Made by a program: the position numbers and the translations under genes
Part shown: piece by piece, positions 451 to 59,964 of the stretch
How positions within the stretch are numbered: position 1 is the stretch's first letter
Layout of the letters: every line of letters begins with the position of its first letter
The notes under the pieces: generated by a model
Told to the model about the DNA's origin: nothing
Database searches by the model: none
The model's input: the letters and a program-made list of their open reading frames with translations, nothing else
NCBI GenBank assembly: GCA_942159475.1
Contig: OW804094.1
Span: 58,152,966-58,216,965, forward strand
Source: Sthenelais limicola
Taxonomy: Eukaryota; Annelida; Polychaeta; Phyllodocida; Sigalionidae
Length of the DNA: 64,000 nt
Direction of reading: 5' to 3'

Positions 451-1121
451 GAAAAATGACTGACACATACATCACCAGGTACAGTCTAAGCCCCGAAACC
501 TGGCAAGAGGAAGACTGCTGATGAAGCAGACAAGGCAACGAGAAGCATGCACAGCATGTATTAGAACAACCGAACCTGCTACGGCTGACTGTTGGGAAAG
601 GCTGACTGACGACTAGGAATAGGCTAGCTGACAACTGGGAAAGACTAGTGACACCGGGAGAGACTGGGTTCAAATTGTGCAGCTTTTGCCGGTGGGCTCT
701 GCGGGCATGAAACACGGTCCGGAACACCCATGGGGCTGCACAGGAGGTCAAGTTGTGGAATGCAGTCCAGAAATGGATGTGAGACAGCATAGGAGACAAG
801 CCTGGACACACACCATAGCGCTTATAGCCTATACCACAACTTCGAAAGAACGGCATTGCCTTGGAGGATAACATCTGGAATGGCCTTGACTGTAGGTGGA
901 AGGGGGTTCACTTACGGCGCGGCCCCTGGAAACCTGCAGTCGCTAAGTGGAGCCTGATCAGCTCTGCTGGGGCACCTCTTGAAGAACACCAGGTACAGTC
1001 TAAGCCCCGAAACCTGGCAAGAGGAAGACTGCTGATGAAGCAGACAAGGCAACGAGAAGCATGCACAGCATGTATTAGAACAACACACTTCAGGTGTTGA
1101 TGTATGTGCCAGTCATTTTTC
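451..1121. mobile_element. Inverted-repeat-flanked unit containing two identical 98-bp copies
   Basis: The left end (about 451-473, GAAAAATGACTGACACATAC) is matched in reverse complement at about 1098-1121 with one or two differences, giving terminal inverted repeats of about 23 bp. Inside, a 98-bp block occurs twice in direct orientation, at 473-570 and 987-1084, and I see no difference between the copies. The DNA between them is GC-richer than its surroundings and has no convincing coding sequence. It may be a non-autonomous transposon. No flanking target-site duplication was recognised. Confidence 0.55.
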
Positions 1122-1374
1122 GCTAAATCTTTAACAAAACCAATCAAAATAATTTTAGATGCATTGTGCTTAAATTTACAAACATTTTTGTGTTTTCTGC
1201 ATCATTGTAGCTCATAATTATATAAGATTAATTGTGAACATCTTTTGAATACTGCCATTCTTGAAGGCCCCTTCTTTTTTATGGCACCCCCCTACCAACT
1301 CTATACCCTAGTCCCTACAGGTGGTGACTTATTGTTAGGTCTAGTCACAATAAATTTTAAATAAATTTTTCGTT

Positions 1375-2175
1375 CAGTTTTGCAAAAGGAAAATTTTACG
1401 ATTGACTTATTTTGACTTTACGATTGACTATTTCGACTTAAAATAAACTTTTCTGACTTTTTTATTGAATATTTCGACTTTACGATTGACTATTTTAGTT
1501 TTTACAATTGACTTTTCTGACTTTATGATTGACTTTTCTGACTTTACGATCGAATATTTGGACTTTTGACAATTGACTTTTCTGACTTTATGATTGACTT
1601 TTCTGACTTTATGATAGACATTTCTAACTTTACGATTGACTATTTCGACTATACGATTGACTATTCCGACTTTTTGGATTGACTATTCTGACTTTTTGAT
1701 TGACTGTTCTGACTTTTCAATTGACTATTCTGACTTTTCAATTTACTGGTCTGACTTTTTTGATTGACTGTTCTCACTTTACAATTGACTGTTCCGTATT
1801 TACAATTGACTATTCTGACTTTACCATTGACGTTTCTGACTTTATGATTGTATGTTTCGACTTTACAATTGACTTTATGATTGACTTTAAGCTTCTTTAC
1901 GATTGACTTTCCTGATTTTACAATTGTCTATTTCGACTTTATGATCTGACTTTTCAATTGACTATTTCAACTTTACGATTGACTTTTTCGACTTTACGAT
2001 CAACTTTTCTGACTTTAGATTGACTCTTTTGACTTTACGATTGACTATTTTGATTTTACGATCAACTTTTCTATCTTTACTATTAACTATTTTGACTTTA
2101 CGATTGACTTTTCTGACTTTACAATTGACTTTTCTGACTTTATGATTGTTATTTCGACTTTACGATTTCCTCCTC
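1375..2175. repeat. Degenerate ~21-bp minisatellite, array 1
   Basis: Dozens of imperfect copies of a unit like GACTTTACGATTGACTATTT run head to tail; frequent 1-3 base indels blur the period. The plus strand is T-rich and shows the recurrent words TTTGAC, CGACTTT and GATTGACT. Related arrays occur at 5529-5885, 12125-12840 and 13215-13835. Open frames through it (for example 1700-1906) are repeat artefacts. Confidence 0.85.
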
Positions 2176-3030
2176 CCAATCTCTCCCTTTCGCCCTCACT
2201 CTCCCTCCCACCTTCTCTCTCTCTCCCTATTCAATGGATTTAAGGTCAGGTTTTTTTTATTTTTTAGAAAAAAAAAACAGACAAAAAAAGGATCTGACAC
2301 AGATATTGAAGCAATTGGGTGGAAAGATTGTAAAATCCTTCCACCCCCTGTTTCCTGAGACAGGAAATACCCAGGCCTGTCTCCAGACATAACCCTTAAT
2401 TGTAGTCCATACCAAAACCAAGCCTATGAACCCTACATTGGTGGTCATAAGTCGGTGAAGTGGGTAGTGGCTAGACCGACTGGGGAGAGGAGGAGGTGGA
2501 AGCATTATGAAATTTACTTTGATGAAAAATTGGCCTTATAGAAGTTGTGAATGTGTATTTTTTTTCATATTGCATTTAAGGCCACTGCTAATTTTTAAAA
2601 AAGCCATCTACCTCCTGACCCAAATTTTCACCATGATGTAATCGGATTCAAAGCTATTTGCTATGTTTAACTAATAAATTAGTGTTAGAAATTGGTTAAC
2701 ATCCAGGGTTCCCAGTGCTGCCTGAAATCAATCCCCTATCAGTGCCCCTACACCAGAATTCTGGGTCGCCCAAAGGGGGCATGATTGAGATCTTATTTGT
2801 CTTCCTATTTCTCCCACTTGTTTCATCTCTTGTCTATCTGCTACAGGGCTGCCAACCTGGGGAAGGCAAACAAGCCTGAGGTTTTCTGTGTCACCTCCTC
2901 CCCTCGAGCCAGAGCCAACTTATGTTTATTCTCAGGCTTATAAATTGCAATGAAATTGTCACGGAAGCTGAAATTATTATGGCTATGTTTGCTGTATTTC
3001 ATGTCTTAGCTCTTGAATTACTCTTGTGTG
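2176..3030. other. Non-coding DNA, nothing recognised
   Basis: Pyrimidine-rich at its left edge, then mixed sequence with A runs near 2265-2290. No gene, RNA or repeat unit could be supported. Confidence 0.4.
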
Positions 3031-3345
3031 AGTGAGAGAAGAGATCTCGAGGTAGCAAGAGAGAAATGAGAGAGAGAGAGGGAATTCGAGAGAGAGAGAA
3101 ATGAGAGAGAGAGAGAATGAGAGAGAGAGACAGATAGAGAGAGAGAGACAGAGATAGAGGGAGAGGGAGAGAGAAAAAAATGATAGAGATAGAAAGAGAG
3201 GGGGAGGGGGGAGCGGGAGATAGAGATGGTTTACACGGCCGGAATTTTTTTTTAAATTGTGCCGTTCACATGGAAATTTACCCTCACAATGAAAGAGGGA
3301 GAGGGAGTGGGAGAGGGAGCGGGACAGGGACAGGGACAGGCAACA
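3031..3345. repeat. Purine-rich (GAGA) tract
   Basis: Long GAGA and GGGA runs on the plus strand are broken by a short interval near 3230-3285. The mirror-like polypurine composition could form triplex (H-) DNA. The apparent Ser/Leu-rich frame on the minus strand is a compositional artefact. Confidence 0.8.
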
Positions 3346-48700: not shown

Positions 48701-51700
48701 ATGAACCGGAAATAAATAAATAAACTGATCACTGTTAACTATTTCTTGTTTATCAGTATAAAATACAGGCCATGTAGGCCAATTATGTAATAGATAAATT
48801 GACCGAAGAGCAAAGAAATGAATAAATGAAAGAATAACTTATTAATGCCAATTACGGTACCGTAACTTTAATTATCACTAATCGCCCCATTGGATTTAGT
48901 AGTAAAATGTCGCAAAGGATCCGATGTGCTCAAGAGCAACCCCATATATCCTTATGTTAACGCTATCACATGTAACACTCTCAAAATAAGGATATCTCGC
49001 GCAACCCAGACAGAATATTTATTTCTACGGTTTCATGTAGAAATGGAGCGCGGCCATGAACCAAAAAACAGAGGGACCCAGCATAGCAGGTGCTATTGAG
49101 AATTCATTGTCGATTCAAGCTTTCAAACAATAGAATACTCAACCGAATGGAATATATATCATTTTCATTTTAAAACCTTTAGTTTCCAGCCATCTGGGCT
49201 TCTACAACGTTAAACACAGAGCAGTCATGAGTTTCAAGAATAAAAACTCAAAAATCGTTCATGTTGTTACACTATATATGACAGAAAATTATTTTGCATT
49301 GTGTTTTATTAAGAACATACAATATTTCTCGGCAAGGCATAATAAACACAAAAGGATAACTCGAATGGAATATTACCAAAACATTCAGGTGGATGGGGCC
49401 ACAATGTCTTTCAGATGAACAACTTTCGTTCTGTGGGTGCAGAAACTTACCTTTTCATTGTTATTTACAGTGCAGTACACCTCTGTTTGAACACAGAATT
49501 GTCCTTTGCTATCAAGGACCTCTCTAGGAAACAGCTAAAATAGAAAAAAAAAACATTAAGGGGAACATGTGAAGAGGTTTAAATTGGAGAGCGCAATACA
49601 TAAAAAGGATTGTCGTAACAATTCAAACTTAGACATAATATAGTGTTTGCACTGCTTGAATAATACAGAAAGTATGATCAAAAGACAAGTATTTTGAGAA
49701 ATTTCATAAAAAGATCACATGTAGAGTACTATAGCAAGAACAGCATAGTATCGCGTATGAGGGGGGCTATATTCTCCGAGTATGGCCGAAAACAATGAGG
49801 CCATAGGCTGAGTTGTTTTTCAGCCATACAAGGAGAATATAGGCCCCCAAAGACGCGATACTTTGCTATTCTTGCTTTTATTCCATGATTCTAACCTTAA
49901 AACAACTTTATTTGCATTAATTTCATCAAATTGTGTTGTCCTCATAGTCTCGAACAGTTGTGATGTCACTGTACAAATTACAATACACAGAGTTTATATT
50001 ATACACCTTGTGAGCGGCAAGTATATTGATTATATTGTACACTCACAGCCAAATCATGGAATGATATTATATCAAGAACAGCATAGTATCGCGTATGAGG
50101 GGGGCTATATATATATATATATATAGAATTTTTATTCAGCAAACATGTACATTAGTTGCAATATAAGCGGGAAAAGGACAAGGTTCGGTCTCCTATGGAG
50201 TTCTTCCGAGTAGCCCTTTTAAAATAAGTAGTAAAATATACATGACAATGTAGTTTGACGGTGTAACAGTGGTACAGTTTCTATTCAATGATTTAACACA
50301 ATTATAATTTGAATGGTAGTGGTTTTACGTTAATACATTTTGTTCGTTATTAGCTTATGGCTGCAGTCCTGTTTTTACTTTCTACATCTATGTCTTAGAT
50401 ATTAGGTAAGACGCGTTATTTCTGCAGTTTAGTTTGTTGTATCCTCTCTGCCTGGACTGGCAGTGTGGGTTGCTATAAACAATGTGTTTCTTCCTAGACT
50501 GGTCGAGAGTTAGGTAATAGTATATTTTTAACTGAAATTAGGTATTGTGTCTCTTCCTAAACTGGTCGAGAGTGATTAAATAATAGTACATTGGACTGGA
50601 GGTAAACTGGTCGAGAGTGATTAAATAATAGTACATTGGACTGGAAGTAATCTTAATACTAACAATATAGCTGAATTTTCAACTTACATTCCCCGTCCCT
50701 TCCCACAATCCACCATTGTATTGGTCTTAATGCACAGATCTTACATGTCTGTCTTCTTCCCCCCTTCCCCCTCTCCCCATACGGTTTCTAACAGATGAGA
50801 TGTGGTTTCCAACCGTTGCGGTTTACATGATTTTATATTCGGTTTCAATACCTCACGGTTTAATACATTTTTTACAATTTGTTATGCTTGGTTACTTATA
50901 TTTCACTTCAGGCACACAGTATATGTTCATAAAAGTAATAAATTTACCTCGAATTACTAACAATTGGTTATAACAATACAGTATTTTCCTGTCCCTGGGG
51001 AATATTTTGTTCTCTCAGGTGGACATCGTATTCCTGAGGGTAAGAGGATTTTAAATATACCTTAAACTCCTTTCTAGTTTTTATAGATCTGGGGTTGGCC
51101 GGAAGACCGTTCCACAACGAGGCCATTCTAAATATATAAGACTTTTTGAAACTTTCGTTTTTCGGGTGGGGTACTTTAAGTTTTTTCCCCTTGCTCAGTC
51201 CCCTCAGTACAATGTTTCTGTTATCCAGGTTATCAGTATTGAGAGTCCTTCTAAATGCCAGCTCAAGAGTGTGGCTTTGCCTTCTCGTATCTAAGGTGGG
51301 CAAATTAACCGCTCTATGTATTTCTCTTGTGCTGGTGAATTTTGGAAGTTCTAGAACAATTTTCAGTGCCGCGTTTTGTAGCGACTGTACTCTGTCAAGG
51401 TATCGTTGTGGGGCTGTTTGATAAAAGATGTCCCCATAATCCAGGTGTGGCATTATAGTGACCTTATAGATAAGTAATAAAGTGTTTCTGTCGCATATAC
51501 CATAGAGTTTAGACAGTGACTTAATTTTAGCCCGTACTACATTTATCTTTTTATCTAAAAAATTCTTAAAGTTTAGTTGCCTGTCGATCTCTACCCCCAG
51601 GAATTTATAATAATCAACGGAGTCAAGTTCATGATGGCCTATACTATAACAAGAATTCATGCTCCTTTCGGGCCTAAGACTAATGTTCAGGTGTTTACAC

Positions 51701-54700
51701 TTTTTTATGTTCAGTGATATTTTGTTCACTTCACACCATCTGACCACACCATTCAAGTCCTCTTGCAGCTCAATGTTATTTCCAGATTTTTTGTCTCTTA
51801 AATTATACAGTACGGTGTCATCCGCAAAATGCTGGATATGACTATGCTTTACGGCTTTATGAAGATCATTAATATAGGTAATAAATAACAGAGGTCCCAG
51901 TGAGGTCCCCTGGGGAACACCACAGGTGACCCCCCTCGACGAGGAAAGTCTACCATTAATGACTACCTTTTGAGTTCTTTCGTCAAGATAATTATGAAAC
52001 CAGTTTAATGAGTGATTCTTTATTCCGAAATTTTGGAGTTTTCCTAAAAGTAATTTGTGGTTCACGGTGTCAAAAGCTTTTTTGAAGTCTAAAAATATGA
52101 GGTCTGTGCTTTTTTTATTATTAATGTTATCATATGTATAAGTGAATAAGTTATCTAAGGCGTCATTGATAGACTTTCCTTGTCGAAACCCAAATTGAAC
52201 ATCACATAGTAATTTGTTAGATTCAAGATGCGTGGACAATTGTCCTTGAACGCAGCTTTCTAAAATTTTGGCCGGTAAAATGATACATGATATGGGCCTA
52301 TAGTTCCCAGTACAGGTTTTGTCCCCCTTTTTATAGATTGGCGTTACTGTTGCGTTCTTAAATTCAATGGGTACGCTTGCAGTTTGCAATGACAGGTTAT
52401 ACAAATACGCAAACTGCTTGCTCAGCGCCATCATACAGGGCTTAAGTATTCTTGTTGGCATCAGATCAATACCTGATGCCTTGTAATTACCAACTTTTTG
52501 GAGGGCGAGTTCTACAGAGATGTCCGTTATAGGTCTAAAGTTAAAATCATTTATGTTTTTGTCCTCTTCGACTGTTGTACCTGAGGGGATTGAGGGTATG
52601 TTCTTGGCGAGGTTAGGTCCAACGTTAACAAAGTATTCATTGAACTCGTCAGCCGCCGCCTTGCCCGATAACCTCATTCCTTCCCCATTATTAATCATTA
52701 TTTCGTTTTCTCTATCTTTGCATTTATCTTTAGCTATAATAGGTTTAATTGTCTCCCAGAACTTGTGTGGGTTAGATCTATTGAGATTGACTTGTCTTTC
52801 TAAATAACTATTTTTTGAACGTCTAATTTCTTCATTTAACCTACATCTCTGTCTCCTCGCCTCCTTCCAGTTTTCTTCTGTCCCATTATTTCTCGCCCTG
52901 TGATATGCCTTATCCCTATTTTTTGACATTTCAATAATAACTTTTGAGTACCACTCAGGGGTTTTGTTCACCTTCTTAAAAGTCTTCACCGGACACATTC
53001 TATTTACATATAGTTCTATGGTGGCGTATAATATTTTCCACGCTTCATTTACCTCTCTCGTTTGATAGAACTTGGTCCAATCCAGATCCCTCAAAATATC
53101 ACGGAGGATTTTTATATCCAGATTTTTTGTGTTTCTGGCTTGAAAAGTTTCCTGTTTGTAAGTATTTCTGAGTTTCTTTACTTGGAGAAAGACTGGCAAA
53201 TGATCGCTTAAGTTTAGGTTTATAGTGCCACTCTCATTAGTGTATTTAACGTTCGTGTGAATGTGGTCTATTTTAGAGCTAGATTTTTTACTAATCCTCG
53301 AAGGTACCTTGATTGTCTGGTGGAGGTTAAATTTACTGAGTAACGTGCCGAACCGGTCAGCGTTTTTTGTTTTACCTTCCTCAATTATATCAGAGTCGTA
53401 ATTGAAGTCGCCCATTACGATCACATCTTTTGATGAGTCAATAGAATTTAATGCCTCATCTAAACATGCAACCGCTTCAATCATACATCCTTGGGGTGGT
53501 CTATAAACATTAAATACCACCTTAGTTTTCATATTTTTCTTCGATATTACAAAACCCTGTATCTCAATATTCTTATTAGAAACAGTAAGTTTCCCACTAA
53601 TTGATCCCCCCTCTGAAACGTCAAATGACTTGTGAATGTACGTGGCTAGCCCCCCTCCTCTTCTCTTCAAGGTTCTATCAGATCTTAATAGCTTATAATC
53701 AGTCACAGTAATTTCGTTGTCCTTAGTATTACCATTAAGCCATGTTTCCTGGATTGATAATATTTGGGGTGACATTGATTTCATTACTTGGCGAACTTGA
53801 TCTACCTTTTGTACTAGACTGCATTAATTCCACGATACAATTTTAAGCCCCTTCAGTTTTCCAACATCTTCTACTTCATATTCCATTTATACCTCATTCT
53901 CTTCCTTCGCCATCTTTTGATGGACCGATTTTTCCCAATCCCAATTGATAACATGACAGTACTTAATTCTCTAACTGGCACAAAAAACAGCTGTGCTCCT
54001 AACACTTTCAATATACTCTTCTGCCCAGTGTTCAATAACTGGGTCAAAACTCAACAACATCTTGTGGTCAACCCTGTCTTTTGGCTCGGGGCCGGACAAT
54101 TCTATACAATTTGTATACCTGGACCCCACACTGCTACGTGCGGACCCCTGCTTGGCTATTAACTCTTCATACATTACTCTTCTGTGTTGAGTGGTTATAT
54201 AAAGGTATTTAGGTTTTTAAATTCCGAAGGAAGGAATTAAAGATAGTTTCAACTACACAGGGAGTTCTAGGAGTATGTGGGCAGGGCCTCAGAAATCGTG
54301 CTCATGAAAGCTCCTGTCTCGTCAGCTTGTCCCCATTCGACCTAGACCCCTGAACACCTAGTACTATAAGACGATTAGCCTAAACTCGGCCGTTGAAAAC
54401 CCTTGTCTCACATTACATATAAAATACAATCGATTATTAATCAAGTTGTCAATGCAATTAGTCAACGGGCTACTTCGGCCCTCTTGTACAGAATTTCTTG
54501 CCCTGTATTATAATTTTAAGTGGCCTTCACTAGGCTTCTTCAAGAACTCTGTCTCCCGTGTCAATACAAAATACAGTTAGTTATCATACACATGCTCCGT
54601 AGGCTTTGCACTGTATTAATGATGGCCTATACTTGGCTTACTTAATAATTCTGTCTCACCTTACATATACATACATAGTACAATTTGATATTTTAATATC

Positions 54701-57700
54701 TATCGGCTATTCCTTGGCCGCACTCTCCTTCTTTCTTTGAACAACATACAATAATAAGTGTAGCCTGGTCTTGGCTAATCAATACCTTTACATAACATGT
54801 TATATTTTTAAGACAGATAGATAGGTATTGTTAGTGCCTATTAGGGCACATGACCCAGATCATTGGACATGCCTCATACTAGAGTGGCCCCTATCATACT
54901 ATATGGTGCCATTAATTGTACTGAATTGCATATTCTAAGACTATCCACAATATTTTTAGTACTTACTTGATCTCCAGTATGAGGAATAGATCTGGACTCC
55001 AGTCCCTTCAAATACCGCTAGTTACTTCATAATCATGTTTGTTATTCGGGTGGTTATTTTAACCCCATACCCCTAAATGTGACTGTTAATATGTGTTTTA
55101 AGCCTCAGAAGTCGTGCTCATGAAAGCTCCTGTCTCTTTGGCATAATTCAAATTAAATAACAGTACATTACCTTAGACAGTTATGTAGTCCATACAGTTT
55201 GTATCCTCTAAAAGTATGTAATAGTTAATGTCAGGTTTAATTTTGTTTGCTTAGCACCAACGGTGTCACTGTCCCTTATTGGTTAAATTTTGTGATAGGC
55301 TTTTACAATTTGTTTCACTACCCCCTCCCTTAGCGTGTCCGTAAAGTGACATCAGTCTTCGGATAACTTGAAGTAGAAAGCTTCATATATTGGTTGTTTA
55401 GTGGTGATATGTTTCCTCTTTGAACGGTTCATGTGAACTAGTTGACTGACATAGGGCGTTGGGACGTGGTGGTTCTTGTTATTGTCCTTCACTGTATTAT
55501 TATAGGCGATAACCAACTTGTTTAGTAGCCCTTGGTCTTCTTCAATCATCTTCAACTTGGACTGTGTTAGAATTTGGTTGAGTCTCCAGGACTTTTGGGA
55601 GTTGAACACGTTGTATTTTACTAAATCCACACCGATGGTAGTGCAGAACAGAATTGTTGGTGGAGGCAGATTTTGCGGAGCTGTTTGGCAGATCGACATT
55701 CTCGCTTGTTCGAGGGCCTCCTCTGTGTCTGCGGATAGTAAAGTGGGACAAGTGTACCTCAGACCAACCTCCTTTGTAAGGTGGTCCCGTTGAGTGAGAT
55801 TACATATCCCCGATGCTATTACTACGACTTTTGGTTTCTCAATCATCCTAAAGTGGGTGGATCTTTCAACGATGGAATGTGTGTCAGCCCCTCTGGCCAC
55901 AAATACACTGACGTCTAGATTTGGCTCGAGACTGGCGAATGTAGCATCGAGCCCCGACGCTCGTGAGTCTCCAATTACAGCCACCTCTCTCCTTGCTAAT
56001 GCCATATTTTGATCTAGTTCTTCGTTCTAGAGTATTACCTTGTATAACTACTTAGTTGACTGTGAGCACCTTCCTGACTTCGTCGAGTATATGCCCAAAA
56101 TTGTTTTTGCCCTTGAAGGAGTTGACTTTTAGCGGTACTCGACCTCCATTGCTTACCAGCACACCTCGAGTGTTTTTCCTCACTCCCCATTTTTCGTCAG
56201 CTGTAATCTCATAGAAACCCTTTATTTTTTCATCGAGTAGTTTCTTAGTAAGGAACTCATGTTGGCTGAATTTTTCAGTTGCTATTTCAGTCAGGATTTT
56301 AACTTCAACCTTCTCCCAACTTCGCATCTGTTGCGAGGCCACTTGTTTATCCAGTTTGCCTCCAAGCCACTTGGCTTGCATGGGACTTGGCGCCTCGCGG
56401 ATTGTATTAGCTTGCTGTGGGAAGCCGTAGTGCCTTGCCTTGGTGCACTGATAGGCATGCTCTGCCGAATGGTAGGTTTCTCCCTTATATCTGATTTCAA
56501 TAGGGTAAAAGTTAGAGTAGCAACTGTGCTTTTCATGGAACCCCAGACCTCCGTTGTCCACTGGAAGTTGGGAGACGTCCTCCGGCCTACACCCGGGCGG
56601 AAGGAGGTTGAGGTCGGCCGATGAGAAAGACTTGTGTGCCTTCCCCCTTACTACTATATGTCCCAGTACCACATCTGTTATGTAATTGCAGCAATTTTTG
56701 ACAGTCTACTACCATTTGGTAGTTCTGATCATGTGTATCTGGTTTATACCTGTTGAACCATATCCTAAGACCCGTTCTGCGCCGAATGTCTTTAGCTTGG
56801 TTTAGAATTATTTTCTTGGTTCTAGACGAGTCAAGCTCGACATAAATTGCTCTCGTTAGTCGACTTTTAGGGATTCCCACCCTGTACGCTAGGAATTTAC
56901 CGTCATCTTTTATTTGTGCTGCGGGTCCAATAATTTGTCTGACTAAACCATCGGTATCTTCTACAATTGAGTAGAAATTCCCATCTGTGATAGGCGCACA
57001 TGGCCTCGGTGAACCGTGTTGCCACCTTTCGGGGACTCCCTCAATCAATACATGTGTCGACCCGTCTACCTTGGAGTCCTTGGTTACGGTCTTATTTGAG
57101 CTCAAAATCTGTTCAGAAATGTCTGAGTTTAAGGATGCTACTGTCTCTCCCACTTTTTCGATTTTGTTACCCAACTGCTCAATTTTCTCTAGGTTTTCCC
57201 CGATTGTTAGCCTGATATCTAGTACTGATTGGTTTACAGCTTCATCGAGCTCGGCGATGGCCTCAATGGCTGCTATATCAACAAACGTATCCCCTGGTTG
57301 CTCTTGTATTTCAGGGGGATTGTCCCCCTTGGACCCATTTTCAGTTATGGGGTTATTCAGTTCTGTACACACATATGATGTTTCGATTTTTCTCAACCTA
57401 CGATTCATGTTTTTGTAATTAAGTTCGTACCATTTTAATTTGTTGTTTAATTTTCTAGTGATCATGTTTGCCTTGAGGTTAATTGAGTGCAGTTCTCTCT
57501 GCAGTCTCCTATTTTCTTTCCAAATCATTTCTGGCCCAGATTCGGCCGCTAGCCTATCGAGTACTTTCTCCGTTATTTTCTGGATTAGTGCTGTTTCGTC
57601 ATCTACTGTCTTCTCTTTATTCAATACATGAGATATTTCCTCATCTAGTTCTGTAAGATTCGTTAGGTTTTGAGGATCAATTCCTGTTTGCCCGTTTACT

Positions 57701-59964
57701 GCTGCGGGAGCTGTGACGTCGTCATCAGCTATTTTGGTTCCCTCACTAACTGACAAAATTTTTGCTACGTTAGAAATTTGCCCTATCTCACTGTGCTCAG
57801 AATCAGAGTTCTCTTCAATGATTAAAGAGTTTTCTAATCTTACATTTTCCTCTTCAATTTCCTCTAGTGTTAGATTGTCTAGGTTTGCTAGTCTCCAAGC
57901 CTCAAGATTTTCTAGTCCCCCTTCTTCAGTGGGAGATGCGGTGGCGATGTCACCATCCCTGTCATCATCCCTGTCACCATATCTGTCACTGGCTGTGCCC
58001 CCTAGATTGTTATCGTCGTGACTTTCTTGATTTACTCTAACCTCCTCTTCCTTTATAGGACTAAGGGTCACGACATATTTTCCTTTAACAGAACCATACT
58101 TGCTTTCCTCTAATTTAGAAATACATTTTAGCAGACAGTCTAGTCTTTGTTCATCAGATGGTTTTCCAGTTTCGGTGGCGGTGGCTCCCTTTCTGTCACC
58201 GTCCCTGTCACACACCTTTATTTTTTCCTGGTTCTCCTGAATCTTCCTACCCTTATCTTCTGTATAAGAAGTTAGTGTCCCTTTTGAGTCTCCTAATGGA
58301 GTATAGTCACTGATTTCCTTCATATTTGGCACATTTGGTAATAGTTGATCTTCGGGCGAATTTTCAGTTTTTTTCCCAGTGCGTGGGACGTCGCTGACGA
58401 CCGTTATCGAACCGTCCGCTTCCATCTTGTTGAAACACCGGCGGCTGATTAAAAACTTGATTATCAATAGAACTATGCAGATCTTGATTATGTTTGCGAT
58501 GAAATTTTGTTCCACAACCATTTACAGTGTCGAGTTGGGTATCAGACAGGTCTGTTCGGTTTCCTTCCTTCTTATTTTCACCTAAACTATTTTCACCTAA
58601 AACTATTTTCACCTCCGAGTATGGCCGAAAACTACGAGGCCGTAGGCCGAGTTGTTTTTCGGCCATACGAGAATACAGGCCGCCGAAGACGCGATACTGT
58701 GCTATTCTTGCTTTTATTCCATGATTCTTAACTTATTACAACTTAATTTGATTTATTTCATCAAATTGTGCTGTCCGCATGGCTCCCCGATAGTCTCGAA
58801 CGGTTGTGACGTCACTGTACAATACAGGGAGTTTATATTGTCCACCTTGTGAGCGGCAAGTATATCGATTATATTGTACGCTCACGGCCAAATCATGGAA
58901 TAAAGGCCTCCGAAGACACGATACTGTGCTATTCTTGCTTTTATTCCATGATTCTTAACTTAAAACAACTTTATTTGCTTTAATTTCATCAAACTGAGTT
59001 GTCTGCATTGTCTCGAACGGTCGTGACATCACTGTACAATACAGGGAGTTTATATTGTCCACCTTGTGAGCGGCAAGTATATCGATTATATTGTACGCTC
59101 ACGGCCAAATCATGGAATAAAGCAAGAACAGCATAGCCATAGTATCGCATATGAGGGGGCGGGGCTATATTCTCCGAGTTTGGCCGAAAACAACGAGGCT
59201 GAGGCCGAGTTGTTTTTTGGCCATACAAGGAAAATATAGGACCCCGAAGATGCGATACTTTGCTATTCTTGCTTTTATTCCATGATTCTTACCTTAAAAC
59301 AACTTTATTTGCATTAATTTAATCAAACTGTGTTGTCCTCATAGTCTTGAACAGTCATGACGTTACTGTACAATACAAAGAGTTGTACACCTTGTGAGCG
59401 GCAAGTATATCGATTATATTGTACGCTCACGGCCAAATCATGGAATAAACTAAAGGATACTGTAAACCCGGACTGCAAAAGATACATGTTGTTAAATACT
59501 AGTAACATGGGAAGTGTGAATGTAATGTGAATGCCTACCCTTGTAATGACTGGAGATTTGGCAAAGGTTTGAAAATAATTCACCTGAAACAAAAGCATAC
59601 CCCGATTAATACAACGTCAACGCCTACATTCAGACAAGTTCCCTTTAACTAATTTATTAAGACTTAAGTTTTAGAAAGGTTAATTGTTGGGTCGTATCTT
59701 TGACCCGGGATCTTTGATTATGTTGTTTACTCACAAAGGAAAATGACAACATAAAAGGGGAGAGGTGTGGGTGAATACTTGAATCACAATCAAGAATTAT
59801 AAAAAGGGTTTTACCAGGTGGCCGAATTCATCCACAGGCTGGTCGTAAAACATAGAATTTAGGATCTCCTCTATTTTTTGAGGGACTCCATTTTCTTGGT
59901 AATAAACCATGGCCCTCTTCTTGGCCTCATACAGCTGACGGGCGCTTACGCCTTTGTTATCCAT
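39777..59964 (-). CDS. ENO4: Enolase 4 (ENO4) homologue, 13 coding exons, 586 aa
   Basis: Exons, 5' to 3' on the minus strand: 59964-59815, 59583-59539, 49534-49451, 47089-46899, 46707-46570, 44825-44651, 43247-43119, 42928-42866, 41671-41507, 41212-41087, 40898-40703, 40606-40539, 40007-39777. Phases close to 1761 nt with TAA. The N-terminus (AMVYYQENGVPQKIEEILNS) and a Lys/Gly linker are ENO4-specific. The enolase barrel follows: MPLPMISIISGG, KGKYEVITGA, IIGLIDPMRK, GESPDTFIADL and FVKLGGLSRGERVSKINRLL. Enolases convert 2-phosphoglycerate to phosphoenolpyruvate. Here the catalytic His (VSHRSGE in classical enolases) is Thr (VTTSAGE) and the catalytic Lys before the NQIG block is Arg. Activity is therefore doubtful by sequence; mouse ENO4 is needed for sperm flagellum structure. 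Intron 2 spans 10 kb because of the retrotransposon. Human ENO4 is 628 aa. Confidence 0.93.
40921..41006. repeat. 45-bp tandem duplication in ENO4 intron 10
   Basis: A 45-bp unit starting GTCCATTAGCCACAGTATCA occurs twice in tandem (40921 and 40966) without differences over most of its length. It lies directly upstream of exon 11 in genome coordinates. Confidence 0.9.
41672..42865 (-). other. ENO4 intron 8
   Basis: AT-rich intron. An imperfect duplication of the word GTGACAAATGTATATTAAT is visible near 42448-42515. No other feature. Confidence 0.5.
44169..44403. mobile_element. 235-bp MITE with ATAT target duplication
   Basis: Terminal inverted repeats of about 28 bp begin GGGTCAGATTTTCAGAAAAT at the left and GGGACAGATTTTCAGAAAAT at the right, continuing to GTACAATT. 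Both ends are flanked by ATAT (44165-44168, 44404-44407). It is AT-rich without coding capacity, in ENO4 intron 6. Confidence 0.8.
44826..46569 (-). other. ENO4 intron 5
   Basis: No recognised gene or transposon. A run of about 14 G occurs near 46221-46234. Confidence 0.45.
47530..47945 (+). pseudogene. LINE C-terminal zinc-finger (zf-RVT) relic
   Basis: Plus-strand frames encode FHRTIGCNAYLKRIRM, then CKFCDEGGIVHM (a CxxC...H finger), then WRLIFDWVRNSRLLQK and a basic tail. This matches the RT-associated zinc-binding region of L1/Tx1-type LINEs. At least one frame shift separates the CKFC part from the open frame at 47631-47930. It is antisense in ENO4 intron 3. Confidence 0.6.
47946..49450 (-). 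other. Rest of ENO4 intron 3
   Basis: Contains a 12-bp-stem palindrome (TTTAGATTGATG and its complement) at 48288-48315 and A-rich stretches, but no gene. Confidence 0.45.
49733..50106. mobile_element. Palindromic MITE copy, left of the retrotransposon
   Basis: 49733-49876 is one ~144-bp imperfect palindrome: AGCAAGAACAGCATAGTATC reads outward to the complementary GATACTTTGCTATTCTTGCT, with a GTATGGCCGAAAACAA / TTGTTTTTCAGCCATAC inner stem. A ~190-bp AT-rich segment then starts TTTATTCCATGATT and ends in its complement AATCATGGAAT near 50052-50062. The next palindrome (50071 onward) is cut at GGGGGGCTATAT by the retrotransposon. Confidence 0.8.
50559..50648 (-). repeat. 45-bp tandem repeat in the LINE 3' UTR
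   Basis: ACTGGTCGAGAGTGATTAAA and the following 25 bp occur twice in tandem (50561 and 50606). A third, diverged start lies near 50498. Short 3' UTR repeats are also present in the sibling LINE. Confidence 0.8.
50968..53784 (-). CDS. LINE endonuclease-reverse transcriptase (5' end broken)
   Basis: 938 aa from the first intact Met. APE-type endonuclease: IQETW (Glu13), MGDFNYD (Asp126, Asn128) and LSDHLPV (Asp194, His195). RT: NYRPISC (~494-500), FGFRQGKSI, FLDFKKAFDTVNH (~564-576), GVPQGTSLGPL (~622-632) and QHFADDTVLY (Asp655-Asp656), then a long thumb and C-terminal tail with SLWNGLP. It nicks target DNA and reverse-transcribes element RNA (target-primed reverse transcription). The natural ORF starts at ATG 53886-53884; an in-frame TAA at 53826-53824 directly follows the SWN motif that holds the first catalytic Asn. 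Translation from 53784 would lack that strand, so the copy is probably inactive for insertion though its RT is open. Confidence 0.9.
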   Translation of the reverse strand: MKSMSPQILSIQETWLNGNTKDNEITVTDYKLLRSDRTLKRRGGGLATYIHKSFDVSEGGSISGKLTVSNKNIEIQGFVISKKNMKTKVVFNVYRPPQGCMIEAVACLDEALNSIDSSKDVIVMGDFNYDSDIIEEGKTKNADRFGTLLSKFNLHQTIKVPSRISKKSSSKIDHIHTNVKYTNESGTINLNLSDHLPVFLQVKKLRNTYKQETFQARNTKNLDIKILRDILRDLDWTKFYQTREVNEAWKILYATIELYVNRMCPVKTFKKVNKTPEWYSKVIIEMSKNRDKAYHRARNNGTEENWKEARRQRCRLNEEIRRSKNSYLERQVNLNRSNPHKFWETIKPIIAKDKCKDRENEIMINNGEGMRLSGKAAADEFNEYFVNVGPNLAKNIPSIPSGTTVEEDKNINDFNFRPITDISVELALQKVGNYKASGIDLMPTRILKPCMMALSKQFAYLYNLSLQTASVPIEFKNATVTPIYKKGDKTCTGNYRPISCIILPAKILESCVQGQLSTHLESNKLLCDVQFGFRQGKSINDALDNLFTYTYDNINNKKSTDLIFLDFKKAFDTVNHKLLLGKLQNFGIKNHSLNWFHNYLDERTQKVVINGRLSSSRGVTCGVPQGTSLGPLLFITYINDLHKAVKHSHIQHFADDTVLYNLRDKKSGNNIELQEDLNGVVRWCEVNKISLNIKKCKHLNISLRPERSMNSCYSIGHHELDSVDYYKFLGVEIDRQLNFKNFLDKKINVVRAKIKSLSKLYGICDRNTLLLIYKVTIMPHLDYGDIFYQTAPQRYLDRVQSLQNAALKIVLELPKFTSTREIHRAVNLPTLDTRRQSHTLELAFRRTLNTDNLDNRNIVLRGLSKGKKLKVPHPKNESFKKSYIFRMASLWNGLPANPRSIKTRKEFKVYLKSSYPQEYDVHLREQNIPQGQENTVLL
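53887..55351 (-). other. Spacer between the SGNH and endonuclease-RT ORFs
   Basis: About 1.5 kb without a long frame; a 67-codon frame at 54174-53971 is unrecognised. A 44-bp word containing GTGCTCATGAAAGCTCCTGT is repeated at about 54291-54334 and 55101-55144. It could be the 5' leader of the RT ORF or a decayed coding part. Confidence 0.5.
55352..56005 (-). CDS. SGNH-hydrolase-like (esterase) ORF of the LINE
   Basis: 217 aa. SGNH block I is IGDSRASGLD (Gly12-Asp13-Ser14, with Ser14 the predicted nucleophile), block II is the Gly in ARGAD (Gly40) and block III is SGICN (Gly66...Asn69). A C-terminal D-x-x-H block is not obvious. SGNH domains are known in ORF1 of CR1/L2-type LINEs, where they may act on lipids or esters; the role is unproved. 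It starts 46 nt after the NADAR stop, in a different frame, on the same strand. Open throughout. The C-terminus is basic (NRSKRKH). Confidence 0.75.
   Translation of the reverse strand: MALARREVAVIGDSRASGLDATFASLEPNLDVSVFVARGADTHSIVERSTHFRMIEKPKVVVIASGICNLTQRDHLTKEVGLRYTCPTLLSADTEEALEQARMSICQTAPQNLPPPTILFCTTIGVDLVKYNVFNSQKSWRLNQILTQSKLKMIEEDQGLLNKLVIAYNNTVKDNNKNHHVPTPYVSQLVHMNRSKRKHITTKQPIYEAFYFKLSED
56052..56672 (-). CDS. NADAR-domain (YbiA-like) ORF of the LINE
   Basis: 206 aa; the domain covers about residues 46-204. Family motifs in order: SNFYPI (53-58), YHSAEHAYQ (67-75) and Lys78, SPMQAKWLG (96-104), Trp119, KFSQHEFL (134-141), ITADEKWG (156-163), GKNNFGHILDEVRKVL (188-203). This is the pattern of E. 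coli YbiA (SEHYFQAQKF, SPM, WG, GKNRLGYLLMELR). NADAR proteins act on ADP-ribose or riboflavin-pathway intermediates as N-glycosidases, and some remove ADP-ribose from nucleic acids. The first 45 residues overlap the end of ORF1 by 86 nt in another frame. It has no stop codons and may be cargo acquired by the element; it could also come from an older nested insertion. Confidence 0.85.
   Translation of the reverse strand: MVLGHIVVRGKAHKSFSSADLNLLPPGCRPEDVSQLPVDNGGLGFHEKHSCYSNFYPIEIRYKGETYHSAEHAYQCTKARHYGFPQQANTIREAPSPMQAKWLGGKLDKQVASQQMRSWEKVEVKILTEIATEKFSQHEFLTKKLLDEKIKGFYEITADEKWGVRKNTRGVLVSNGGRVPLKVNSFKGKNNFGHILDEVRKVLTVN
56587..58521 (-). CDS. ORF1-like coiled-coil protein of the LINE
   Basis: 644 aa from the first Met. 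A second Met (residue 33, codon at 58425, MEADGSITVV) may be the true start, because the first 32 residues look like a chance hydrophobic run. The middle is acidic with GDRDGD-type repeats. Predicted coiled coil lies around residues 310-460 (RLQRELHSINLKANMITRKL). A C-terminal globular part (about 500-625) has VLIEGVPERW and TRAIYVELDSSRTKKIILNQ, resembling the RRM/C-terminal region of LINE ORF1 proteins that bind element RNA. No zinc knuckle is visible. It overlaps the NADAR start. Confidence 0.7.
   Translation of the reverse strand: MVVEQNFIANIIKICIVLLIIKFLISRRCFNKMEADGSITVVSDVPRTGKKTENSPEDQLLPNVPNMKEISDYTPLGDSKGTLTSYTEDKGRKIQENQEKIKVCDRDGDRKGATATETGKPSDEQRLDCLLKCISKLEESKYGSVKGKYVVTLSPIKEEEVRVNQESHDDNNLGGTASDRYGDRDDDRDGDIATASPTEEGGLENLEAWRLANLDNLTLEEIEEENVRLENSLIIEENSDSEHSEIGQISNVAKILSVSEGTKIADDDVTAPAAVNGQTGIDPQNLTNLTELDEEISHVLNKEKTVDDETALIQKITEKVLDRLAAESGPEMIWKENRRLQRELHSINLKANMITRKLNNKLKWYELNYKNMNRRLRKIETSYVCTELNNPITENGSKGDNPPEIQEQPGDTFVDIAAIEAIAELDEAVNQSVLDIRLTIGENLEKIEQLGNKIEKVGETVASLNSDISEQILSSNKTVTKDSKVDGSTHVLIEGVPERWQHGSPRPCAPITDGNFYSIVEDTDGLVRQIIGPAAQIKDDGKFLAYRVGIPKSRLTRAIYVELDSSRTKKIILNQAKDIRRRTGLRIWFNRYKPDTHDQNYQMVVDCQKLLQLHNRCGTGTYSSKGEGTQVFLIGRPQPPSARV
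58570..58612 (-). repeat. Short tandem words at the LINE 5' end
   Basis: ATTTTCACCTAAACT is repeated about three times at 14-15 bp spacing directly next to the inferred insertion boundary. It could be element 5' sequence or added during insertion. Confidence 0.55.
58613..59449. mobile_element. Palindromic MITE cluster, right of the retrotransposon
   Basis: It resumes the interrupted palindrome (CTCCGAGTATGGCCGAAAAC). It then has three segments starting TTTATTCCATGATT and ending AATCATGGAATAAA (about 58709-58902, 58935-59120, 59269-59448), separated by full or partial palindromes. All share TGAGCGGCAAGTATATCGAT and TGTACGCTCACGGCCAAATC. Alternating foldback and TIR-flanked segments suggest tandem or nested insertion of one MITE family. 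Confidence 0.8.

What the first reader, a model, noticed from the sequence alone, without database searches (positions are those of the whole stretch)
50107..58612. LINE carrying a NADAR gene plus an SGNH hydrolase gene
Sequence shows four same-strand ORFs inside one bounded insertion: coiled-coil ORF1-like, NADAR with all family motifs, SGNH with GDS and GxxN blocks, and endonuclease-RT. SGNH in CR1/L2 ORF1 is known. I do not know a described LINE with an intact NADAR ORF. NADAR enzymes act on ADP-ribose-type substrates, so the element could counter host ADP-ribosylation or NAD-based defence. That role is inference.
Basis: partly seen in the sequence, partly recalled or inferred. Interest (0 to 1): 0.88.

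Follow-up and report, generated by a model that had tools for sequence, protein, structure and literature searches.

The report
LINEs with a NADAR-tailed ORF1 protein
A large set of LINE-type jumping genes in this genome carries a NADAR domain fused to its first protein, often followed by a second hydrolase-like gene, and the NADAR domain would likely strip ADP-ribose from the element's own RNA or new DNA strand, which would point to ADP-ribosylation as a host defence.

Summary
Window 58,612-50,107 (minus strand) is a bounded LINE insertion with ORF1, NADAR, SGNH-like and endonuclease-RT sequences. The window copy is broken in all three genes. Of 20 loci fetched from the NADAR hit list, 19 are LINEs of this plan, 13 with the SGNH-like ORF. 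Of 48 loci picked by RT alone, 30 have NADAR upstream; the misses look mostly 5'-truncated. NADAR dN/dS is 0.04-0.23, and its identity exceeds that of RT in 16 of 21 pairs, the five exceptions all in the window's lineage. Catalytic residues are kept. NADAR and RT trees agree. NADAR in LINE ORF1 is already in print in one sentence (oyster Tx1, PMC12477816); the CR1/L2/Jockey-like RT, the separate SGNH-like ORF with Cys for the oxyanion Asn, and the selection evidence I did not find in print. Best mechanism, untested: ORF1p-tethered guanine de-ADP-ribosylase.

The parts
50107..58612 (-). Damaged LINE copy, 5' end at about 58612, 3' end (TA)n at 50107
   Evidence: Joined flanks match the neighbouring satellite unit; three sister copies at about 93% with other flanks
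56675..58521 (-). ORF1, upstream part: acidic N-terminus (by eye), then a region with weak matches to coiled coils and to L1 ORF1p
   Evidence: (coiled-coil chains E 0.01, LINE-1 ORF1p 2ykp E 0.1 only)
56052..56675 (-). C-terminal end of ORF1 with the NADAR domain (domain about 56534-56064), here in another frame than the upstream part
   Evidence: Pfam PF08719 4.8e-22; one reading frame in L039, L040, L041
55352..56026 (-). SGNH-like hydrolase ORF, cut short here; 247 aa in the three sister copies
53887..55285 (-). Spacer between the SGNH-like ORF and ORF2 (1.2-1.4 kb)
55102..55136 (-). 35-nt motif in the spacer, copy 1
54286..54320 (-). 35-nt motif in the spacer, copy 2
50968..53886 (-). ORF2: endonuclease and reverse transcriptase; open from 53823 on, with a stop near its start in this copy
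50107..50967 (-). 3' region with tandem 45-nt units (50558-50647), AATAAA and (TA)n tail

Best explanation
The insertion is a damaged copy of a three-gene LINE whose first protein ends in a NADAR domain that is predicted to remove ADP-ribose from guanines in the element's own RNA or new DNA strand. Shown: in the sister copies ORF1 is one protein ending in NADAR, followed at once by an SGNH-like ORF and, after a spacer, by ORF2 (endonuclease-RT); NADAR and SGNH show purifying selection in the pairs where it could be measured, and the NADAR catalytic residues are retained. Inferred: ORF1p coats the LINE RNA as other ORF1ps do, which would hold NADAR next to RNA, cDNA and the nicked target during target-primed reverse transcription. 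There it would erase guanine ADP-ribosylation, a lesion that would hinder translation or reverse transcription, placed by a host ADP-ribosyltransferase. The SGNH-like protein would help the RNP at membranes, as proposed for CR1/L2 esterases. Predicted: enzyme activity. Untested: substrate, host enzyme, benefit to transposition.
For: Single ORF1 with NADAR in L039-L041. 14 of 14 ORF1s in alignment A1 (13 taken from NADAR hits plus L039) match PF08719; the profile hits a solved NADAR, 8bau, at 3.8e-27. In 24 LINE NADARs (window included, some near-identical): E at the E88 place 24, K or R at the K95 place 23, K at the K115 place 24, superfamily E 24, W 24. NADAR dN/dS 0.04-0.23 where dS was measurable; NADAR identity exceeds RT identity in 16 of 21 pairs, not independent of each other. 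NADAR and RT distances correlate, Mantel r 0.78, 0 of 2000 permutations as high. RT-first sample: 30 of 48 loci with NADAR upstream (one). NADARs hydrolyse ADP-ribosyl-guanine on DNA (PMC11543638, passages) and on RNA (PMC11833690, passages). Guanine-N2 ADP-ribosyltransferases exist in some animals, e.g. CARP-1 in a clam (PMC11209040, passages).
Against: No enzyme test. The window copy cannot make the protein. In 11 of 24 the key Lys is Arg, and one (L022) has Glu: for E. coli C7 NADAR, K95R kept in vitro activity but lost rescue of DarT1 toxicity. NADARs differ in specificity even between close relatives (PMC11125620, passages), and YbiA is reported to act on riboflavin intermediates. In the window's own lineage NADAR is less conserved than RT in 5 of 7 pairs. 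A host guanine ADP-ribosyltransferase was not found because the search did not complete. I know of no report of guanine ADP-ribosylation on LINE RNA.
Confidence: 0.5

Rival explanations
1. NADAR works as a reader: it binds ADP-ribose without needing turnover and docks the LINE RNP at nicked or damaged chromatin marked by host PARPs, where target-primed reverse transcription starts.
For: A solved NADAR with bound ADP-ribose is described; fusion to ORF1p; Arg at the phosphate Lys in 11 of 24 need not stop binding.
Against: Both conserved Glu residues are kept in 24 of 24, more than binding alone would seem to need.
Confidence: 0.2
2. NADAR acts on something other than ADP-ribosyl-guanine (RNA processing, a nucleotide metabolite or another N-glycoside) needed in the RNP cycle.
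For: E. coli YbiA is reported to act on riboflavin intermediates; the Ectocarpus authors suggest processing of RNA intermediates.
Against: All NADAR representatives tested on guanosine-ADP-ribose RNA in PMC11833690 removed it.
Confidence: 0.2
3. NADAR and SGNH are passengers: host genes picked up by this copy, or separate insertions, with no role in the element.
For: The window copy alone shows broken frames.
Against: Same order and spacing in many copies (84 of the first 100 SGNH rows have NADAR 42-167 bp upstream), low dN/dS, congruent trees.
Confidence: 0.03
4. SGNH is the working part and NADAR a structural C-terminal domain of ORF1p (for example a dimer or RNA-binding surface).
For: The SGNH esterase of a zebrafish LINE binds lipids (PMC3905857).
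Against: Six of the 19 LINE loci (L009, 14, 15, 16, 22, 24) keep NADAR and show no SGNH-like frame of 180 aa or more; catalytic-site residues are invariant or nearly so in NADAR.
Confidence: 0.07

Closest known systems
NADAR-bearing ORF1 of Tx1 LINEs, Crassostrea gigas (Repbase, noted in PMC12477816; passages read)
   Same: NADAR domain in the ORF1 protein of a LINE
   Different: Those are called Tx1. The RTs here carry a GVPQG-type motif that I recall for the CR1/L2/Jockey group, not for L1/Tx1. The passages I saw give no SGNH, selection or copy analysis.
NADAR in Gypsy Pol, Ectocarpus (PMC12477816)
   Same: NADAR in a retrotransposon protein
   Different: LTR element, N-terminal region of Pol, another host group
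Esterase ORF1p of CR1/L2/RTEX/Penelope (ZfL2-1; PMC3905857, passages)
   Same: SGNH-type hydrolase in a LINE; Ser, Asp, His kept here too
   Different: There a domain of ORF1p with Asn in the oxyanion hole; here a separate ORF after ORF1 with Cys at that place
GDSL ORF3 of bdelloid LTR elements (PMC5408684, passages)
   Same: Separate GDSL/SGNH ORF in a retroelement
   Different: LTR element, ORF3; the word NADAR does not occur in the paper
Type II ORF1 of the Jockey superfamily (coiled coil, RRM, CTD; PMC4120745, passages)
   Same: Possibly the same upstream plan (weak evidence)
   Different: No NADAR type is described in the passages I saw
DarT1-NADAR toxin-antitoxin (PMC11543638, passages)
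   Same: NADAR catalytic residues; it works like the antitoxin in the proposed mechanism
   Different: Bacterial operon with a toxin; no toxin partner seen here

Membership tests
LINE (non-LTR retrotransposon), APE-like endonuclease type | Endonuclease and RT in ORF2 | tested here: met
LINE (non-LTR retrotransposon), APE-like endonuclease type | 3' simple-repeat tail, many copies with different flanks, 5' truncation | tested here: met
   Of the 18 NADAR-less RT loci two were read upstream, both without element sequence in the stretch read
LINE (non-LTR retrotransposon), APE-like endonuclease type | Target-site duplication | tested here: inconclusive
   No clear duplication at the window site
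CR1/L2/Jockey group | RT motif of the GVPQG..GP..ADD form | tested here: met
   RT lines printed (two read GVAQG; L011 was not printed). That this marks the group is recalled; no reference RT tree could be built, so the clade inside the group is open
L1/Tx1 group | RT motif of the L1 form (recalled) | tested here: not met
   None of the RT lines printed has it
NADAR superfamily | Pfam PF08719 above its cut-off | tested here: met
   79.4 bits against 35.1
NADAR superfamily | Catalytic Glu, Lys/Arg, second Glu | tested here: met
   24, 23 and 24 of 24; residue roles
NADAR superfamily | Guanine-ADP-ribose hydrolysis | not testable with these tools
   Needs an assay
SGNH hydrolase superfamily | Ser, Gly, Asn, His in the four blocks | tested here: not met
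   Gly, Asp and His in 15 of 15, Ser in the 14 rows that reach it, but the Asn of block III is Cys in 15 of 15; block III aligns to GIND of 3p94
SGNH hydrolase superfamily | Profile match | tested here: inconclusive
   Lipase_GDSL_2 in 2 of 15, best E 0.0086; 3p94 E 0.015
SGNH hydrolase superfamily | Flavodoxin-like fold | tested here: inconclusive
   Single-sequence model, mean pLDDT 30.5, unusable

The most novel reading that the evidence does not exclude
LINEs carry their own nucleic-acid de-ADP-ribosylase as part of ORF1p, as a standing counter-defence: hosts would mark transposon RNA or cDNA by guanine ADP-ribosylation, an undescribed anti-transposon defence, and NADAR would erase it. The Polinton-like locus with a NADAR in the same genome would be a second, independent case.
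Probability: 0.33. Interest if true: 0.92.

Novelty: new variant of a known kind. Interest (0 to 1): 0.72.

Why it matters
If the domain works as predicted, a transposon's ORF1 protein is an eraser of nucleic-acid ADP-ribosylation, kept in several deep LINE lineages and, outside the window's own lineage, more conserved than the reverse transcriptase. That would make reversible guanine ADP-ribosylation, known mainly from bacterial toxin-antitoxin systems and a few animal proteins, part of the conflict between hosts and their transposons. It is directly testable: one ORF1 protein, one modified oligonucleotide, one point mutant. It also suggests that some NADAR genes annotated in eukaryotic genomes are transposon copies.

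Tried and rejected
Protein searches of the 5.8-billion set with the ORF1 alignment, the SGNH alignment and the window NADAR gave no hit at E 1e-3, not even this genome's other copies, so this says nothing about other species. Structure models of the window NADAR and SGNH-like protein from single sequences were unusable (mean pLDDT 41.8 and 30.5), so no fold search was run. Rfam found nothing in the element or in ten relatives. The 35-nt spacer motif folds into a small hairpin in its three forms, no better than shuffles (z -0.85, -0.27, 0.06). The ORF1 upstream profile found only coiled-coil and unrelated chains at E 0.13 or worse; LINE-1 ORF1p appeared at E 0.1 with the full profile. Host identity: mollusc-type haemocyanin gave no match, with no positive control, so the host group stays open. 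Passenger genes and chance were rejected. A host guanine ADP-ribosyltransferase was sought with a Pfam accession recalled from memory for scabin-like proteins; it did not complete.

Limits: the 20 loci were picked by hand down the list of 150. score about 150 candidates each and scores 48 of 30616, so counts are lower bounds. In one search I used the first 100 of the listed SGNH rows. 16 of the 18 NADAR-less RT loci were not read. dN/dS mixes evolution within the element with drift after insertion; many between-family dS values were saturated and give no ratio. The L027 stand-alone NADAR falls among the LINE NADARs with weak support, so one single origin of all LINE NADARs is not shown. Literature searches cover an open-licence library only, and of the longer lists only the top rows were seen (20 of 104, 15 of 29). 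PMC10294476 was listed but not read (one search failed).

Full report
What is there. On the minus strand of the window, from about 58,612 to 50,107, lies one bounded insertion with four coding stretches: an ORF1-like frame, a NADAR domain, an SGNH-like frame and an endonuclease-RT frame. It sits inside a satellite of inverted-repeat units. When the two flanks are joined, they align through the join at 84% over 346 nt to the neighbouring unit, with 27 gap positions of which 5 are at the join. The 3' end is AATAAAAATTC(TA)n.

What the copy looked like before it broke. A DNA search of the own genome with the NADAR-SGNH stretch found three sister copies at 95% on other chromosomes and about ten places near 69-70%. 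The sisters (L039, L040, L041) match the window over almost its whole length at about 90-94% (L040 lacks a piece of ORF2), have different flanks and the same 3' end. In all three, ORF1 is a single frame of 826-830 aa whose last 165 or so residues are the NADAR domain, followed by a separate 247 aa SGNH-like frame. In L039 and L041, where it was measured, the SGNH frame starts 28 nt after ORF1 and ORF2 (971 aa, open) follows after a 1.2 kb spacer. So the element has three genes, not four. The window copy is a damaged member: a frame break near 56,675 cuts NADAR off ORF1, the SGNH-like frame stops before its DGxH block, ORF2 has a stop near its start, and some 50-60 nt of the 5' end are missing.

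How general it is. A Pfam NADAR search of the genome scored 150 of 5561 candidates, all 150 over the cut-off. Of 20 loci fetched from that list, picked by hand, 19 are LINEs with NADAR inside ORF1 and an EN-RT frame, or pieces of one, downstream; 13 of the 19 also have an SGNH-like frame between. Seven of these 13 frames reach E 1e-4 against the window's (L011, L013, L019, L021, L023, L026, L028); the other six were assigned by place, five of them aligned and L012 by its 94.6% identity to L018. The twentieth (L027) is a stand-alone NADAR. A second search with one NADAR of the window's own lineage scored 150 of 4271 candidates, 45-100% identical, and one with its SGNH-like protein gave 151 matches. 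Of the first 100 SGNH rows, 84 have a same-strand NADAR ending 42-167 bp upstream, median 73.

A sample not chosen by NADAR. Searching with the window's RT alone gave 48 scored loci of 30616 candidates. NADAR lies on the same strand 1.7-2.45 kb upstream in 29; one more has NADAR and SGNH fragments by DNA, so 30 of 48. Of the 18 without, 15 lack SGNH as well and 3 have an SGNH row, one of them partial; one locus has NADAR but no listed SGNH. Loss from the 5' end inwards is what LINE truncation leaves. Two of the 18 were read upstream (L044, L045): no match to the element in the 1.8-1.9 kb read. The other 16 were not read, so loss of NADAR from some intact families is not excluded.

Selection and age. 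Where dS could be measured, NADAR dN/dS was 0.04-0.23 (zero in one near-identical pair), SGNH 0.05-0.14 with one value of 0.39, EN-RT 0.05-0.24, the ORF1 part before NADAR 0.03-0.19; the part after NADAR in other lineages was looser, 0.18-0.76. NADAR identity exceeded RT identity in 16 of the 21 pairs with both values (for example 74.5% against 63.8% in L018/L017). The five exceptions are all in the window's own lineage (for example L039/L042, 72.6% against 76.5%). NADAR and RT trees of 24 loci recover the same main groups, with distance correlation 0.78 and 0 of 2000 permutations as high; deep nodes are poorly supported, L013 is weakly placed in both, and some shallow nodes differ. The stand-alone L027 NADAR falls among the LINE NADARs with support 0.66. 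The simplest reading is that NADAR has travelled with the RT since before these groups split. One group (L009, L014, L015, L016, L022, L024) has NADAR and no SGNH-like frame of 180 aa or more.

Is NADAR still an enzyme? Against the solved NADAR 8bau and E. coli YbiA, the 24 LINE NADARs keep the first catalytic Glu (24), Lys or Arg at the phosphate-binding place (12 and 11; one Glu), the Lys linked to toxin rescue (24), the superfamily Glu (24) and the Trp (24). The residue roles come from PMC11543638 (passages); placing them on these sequences is my alignment. The SGNH-like protein keeps Gly, Asp and His in 15 of 15 rows and Ser in the 14 rows that reach it, but the Asn of block III is Cys in all 15, aligned to the Asn of a solved GDSL lipase. 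Sequence support for the superfamily is weak, and no usable model was made, so I call it SGNH-like.

How it most likely works (inference). ORF1 proteins coat the LINE RNA (general knowledge of LINEs). A NADAR at the end of such a protein would sit next to RNA, the growing cDNA and the nicked target. NADARs remove ADP-ribose from guanines in DNA (PMC11543638) and RNA, while the macrodomain and ARH-like enzymes tested beside them did not do so for guanosine RNA (PMC11833690, passages). Guanine-N2 ADP-ribosyltransferases exist in animals: the activity was found in six edible clams and CARP-1 cloned from one (PMC11209040, passages); whether this host has one is unknown. The economical reading is that the domain cleans the element's own nucleic acids of a host-made lesion. 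I give this 0.5; rivals are a reader or docking role and another substrate.

What is known. PMC12477816 (passages) reports NADAR domains in ORF1 of several Tx1 LINEs of the Pacific oyster in Repbase, in one sentence, and in Ectocarpus Gypsy Pol. I saw no other such paper in the rows listed for NADAR with retrotransposon, with transposon, with LINE plus reverse transcriptase plus ADP-ribose, YbiA with LINE, DUF1768 with transposable element, and Tx1 with oyster; these cover only the open-licence library. SGNH esterases in CR1, RTEX and Penelope ORF1p are known (PMC3905857, passages), ORF1 types of the Jockey superfamily are catalogued without a NADAR type in the passages seen (PMC4120745), and a GDSL ORF3 is known in bdelloid LTR elements (PMC5408684, passages). 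The RTs here carry a GVPQG-type motif, the form I recall for CR1/L2/Jockey, not for L1/Tx1. Hence: a new variant of a known kind.

Noticed in passing
L027:3974-7034 (G000:C1, minus strand), with two similar 162-codon NADAR hits elsewhere on C1: Stand-alone 162 aa NADAR beside frames that look by eye like a Polinton-type DNA polymerase and packaging ATPase (no Pfam hit for these); an RT with a GIY-YIG domain, Penelope-like, lies next to it (1021-3174).
   Followed up: partly
window 55102-55136 and 54286-54320; L042 3672 and 3991; L043 3758: A 35-nt motif in the spacer before ORF2 stays recognisable between families whose spacer otherwise gave no blastn match; small GCUY/GAGC hairpin, not better than shuffles.
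   Followed up: partly
ORF1 N-terminus in L039, L042, L043 (window about 58521-58430): A hydrophobic stretch followed by basic residues opens ORF1 in three families of this lineage (by eye); it could be a membrane anchor, which would fit a lipid link of SGNH.
   Followed up: no
alignment A2, column of C75 (L039 numbering): Cys replaces the oxyanion Asn of SGNH hydrolases in 15 of 15 sequences.
   Followed up: partly
L026:3994-5250 and L028:4171-5370: Open frames of 419 and 400 aa in the spacer, no Pfam match; may be only stop-poor spacer.
   Followed up: no
window 49725-50106 and 58613-59450: Satellite of nested direct and inverted repeats (60-nt arms, 85% complementary) into which the LINE inserted.
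   Followed up: partly
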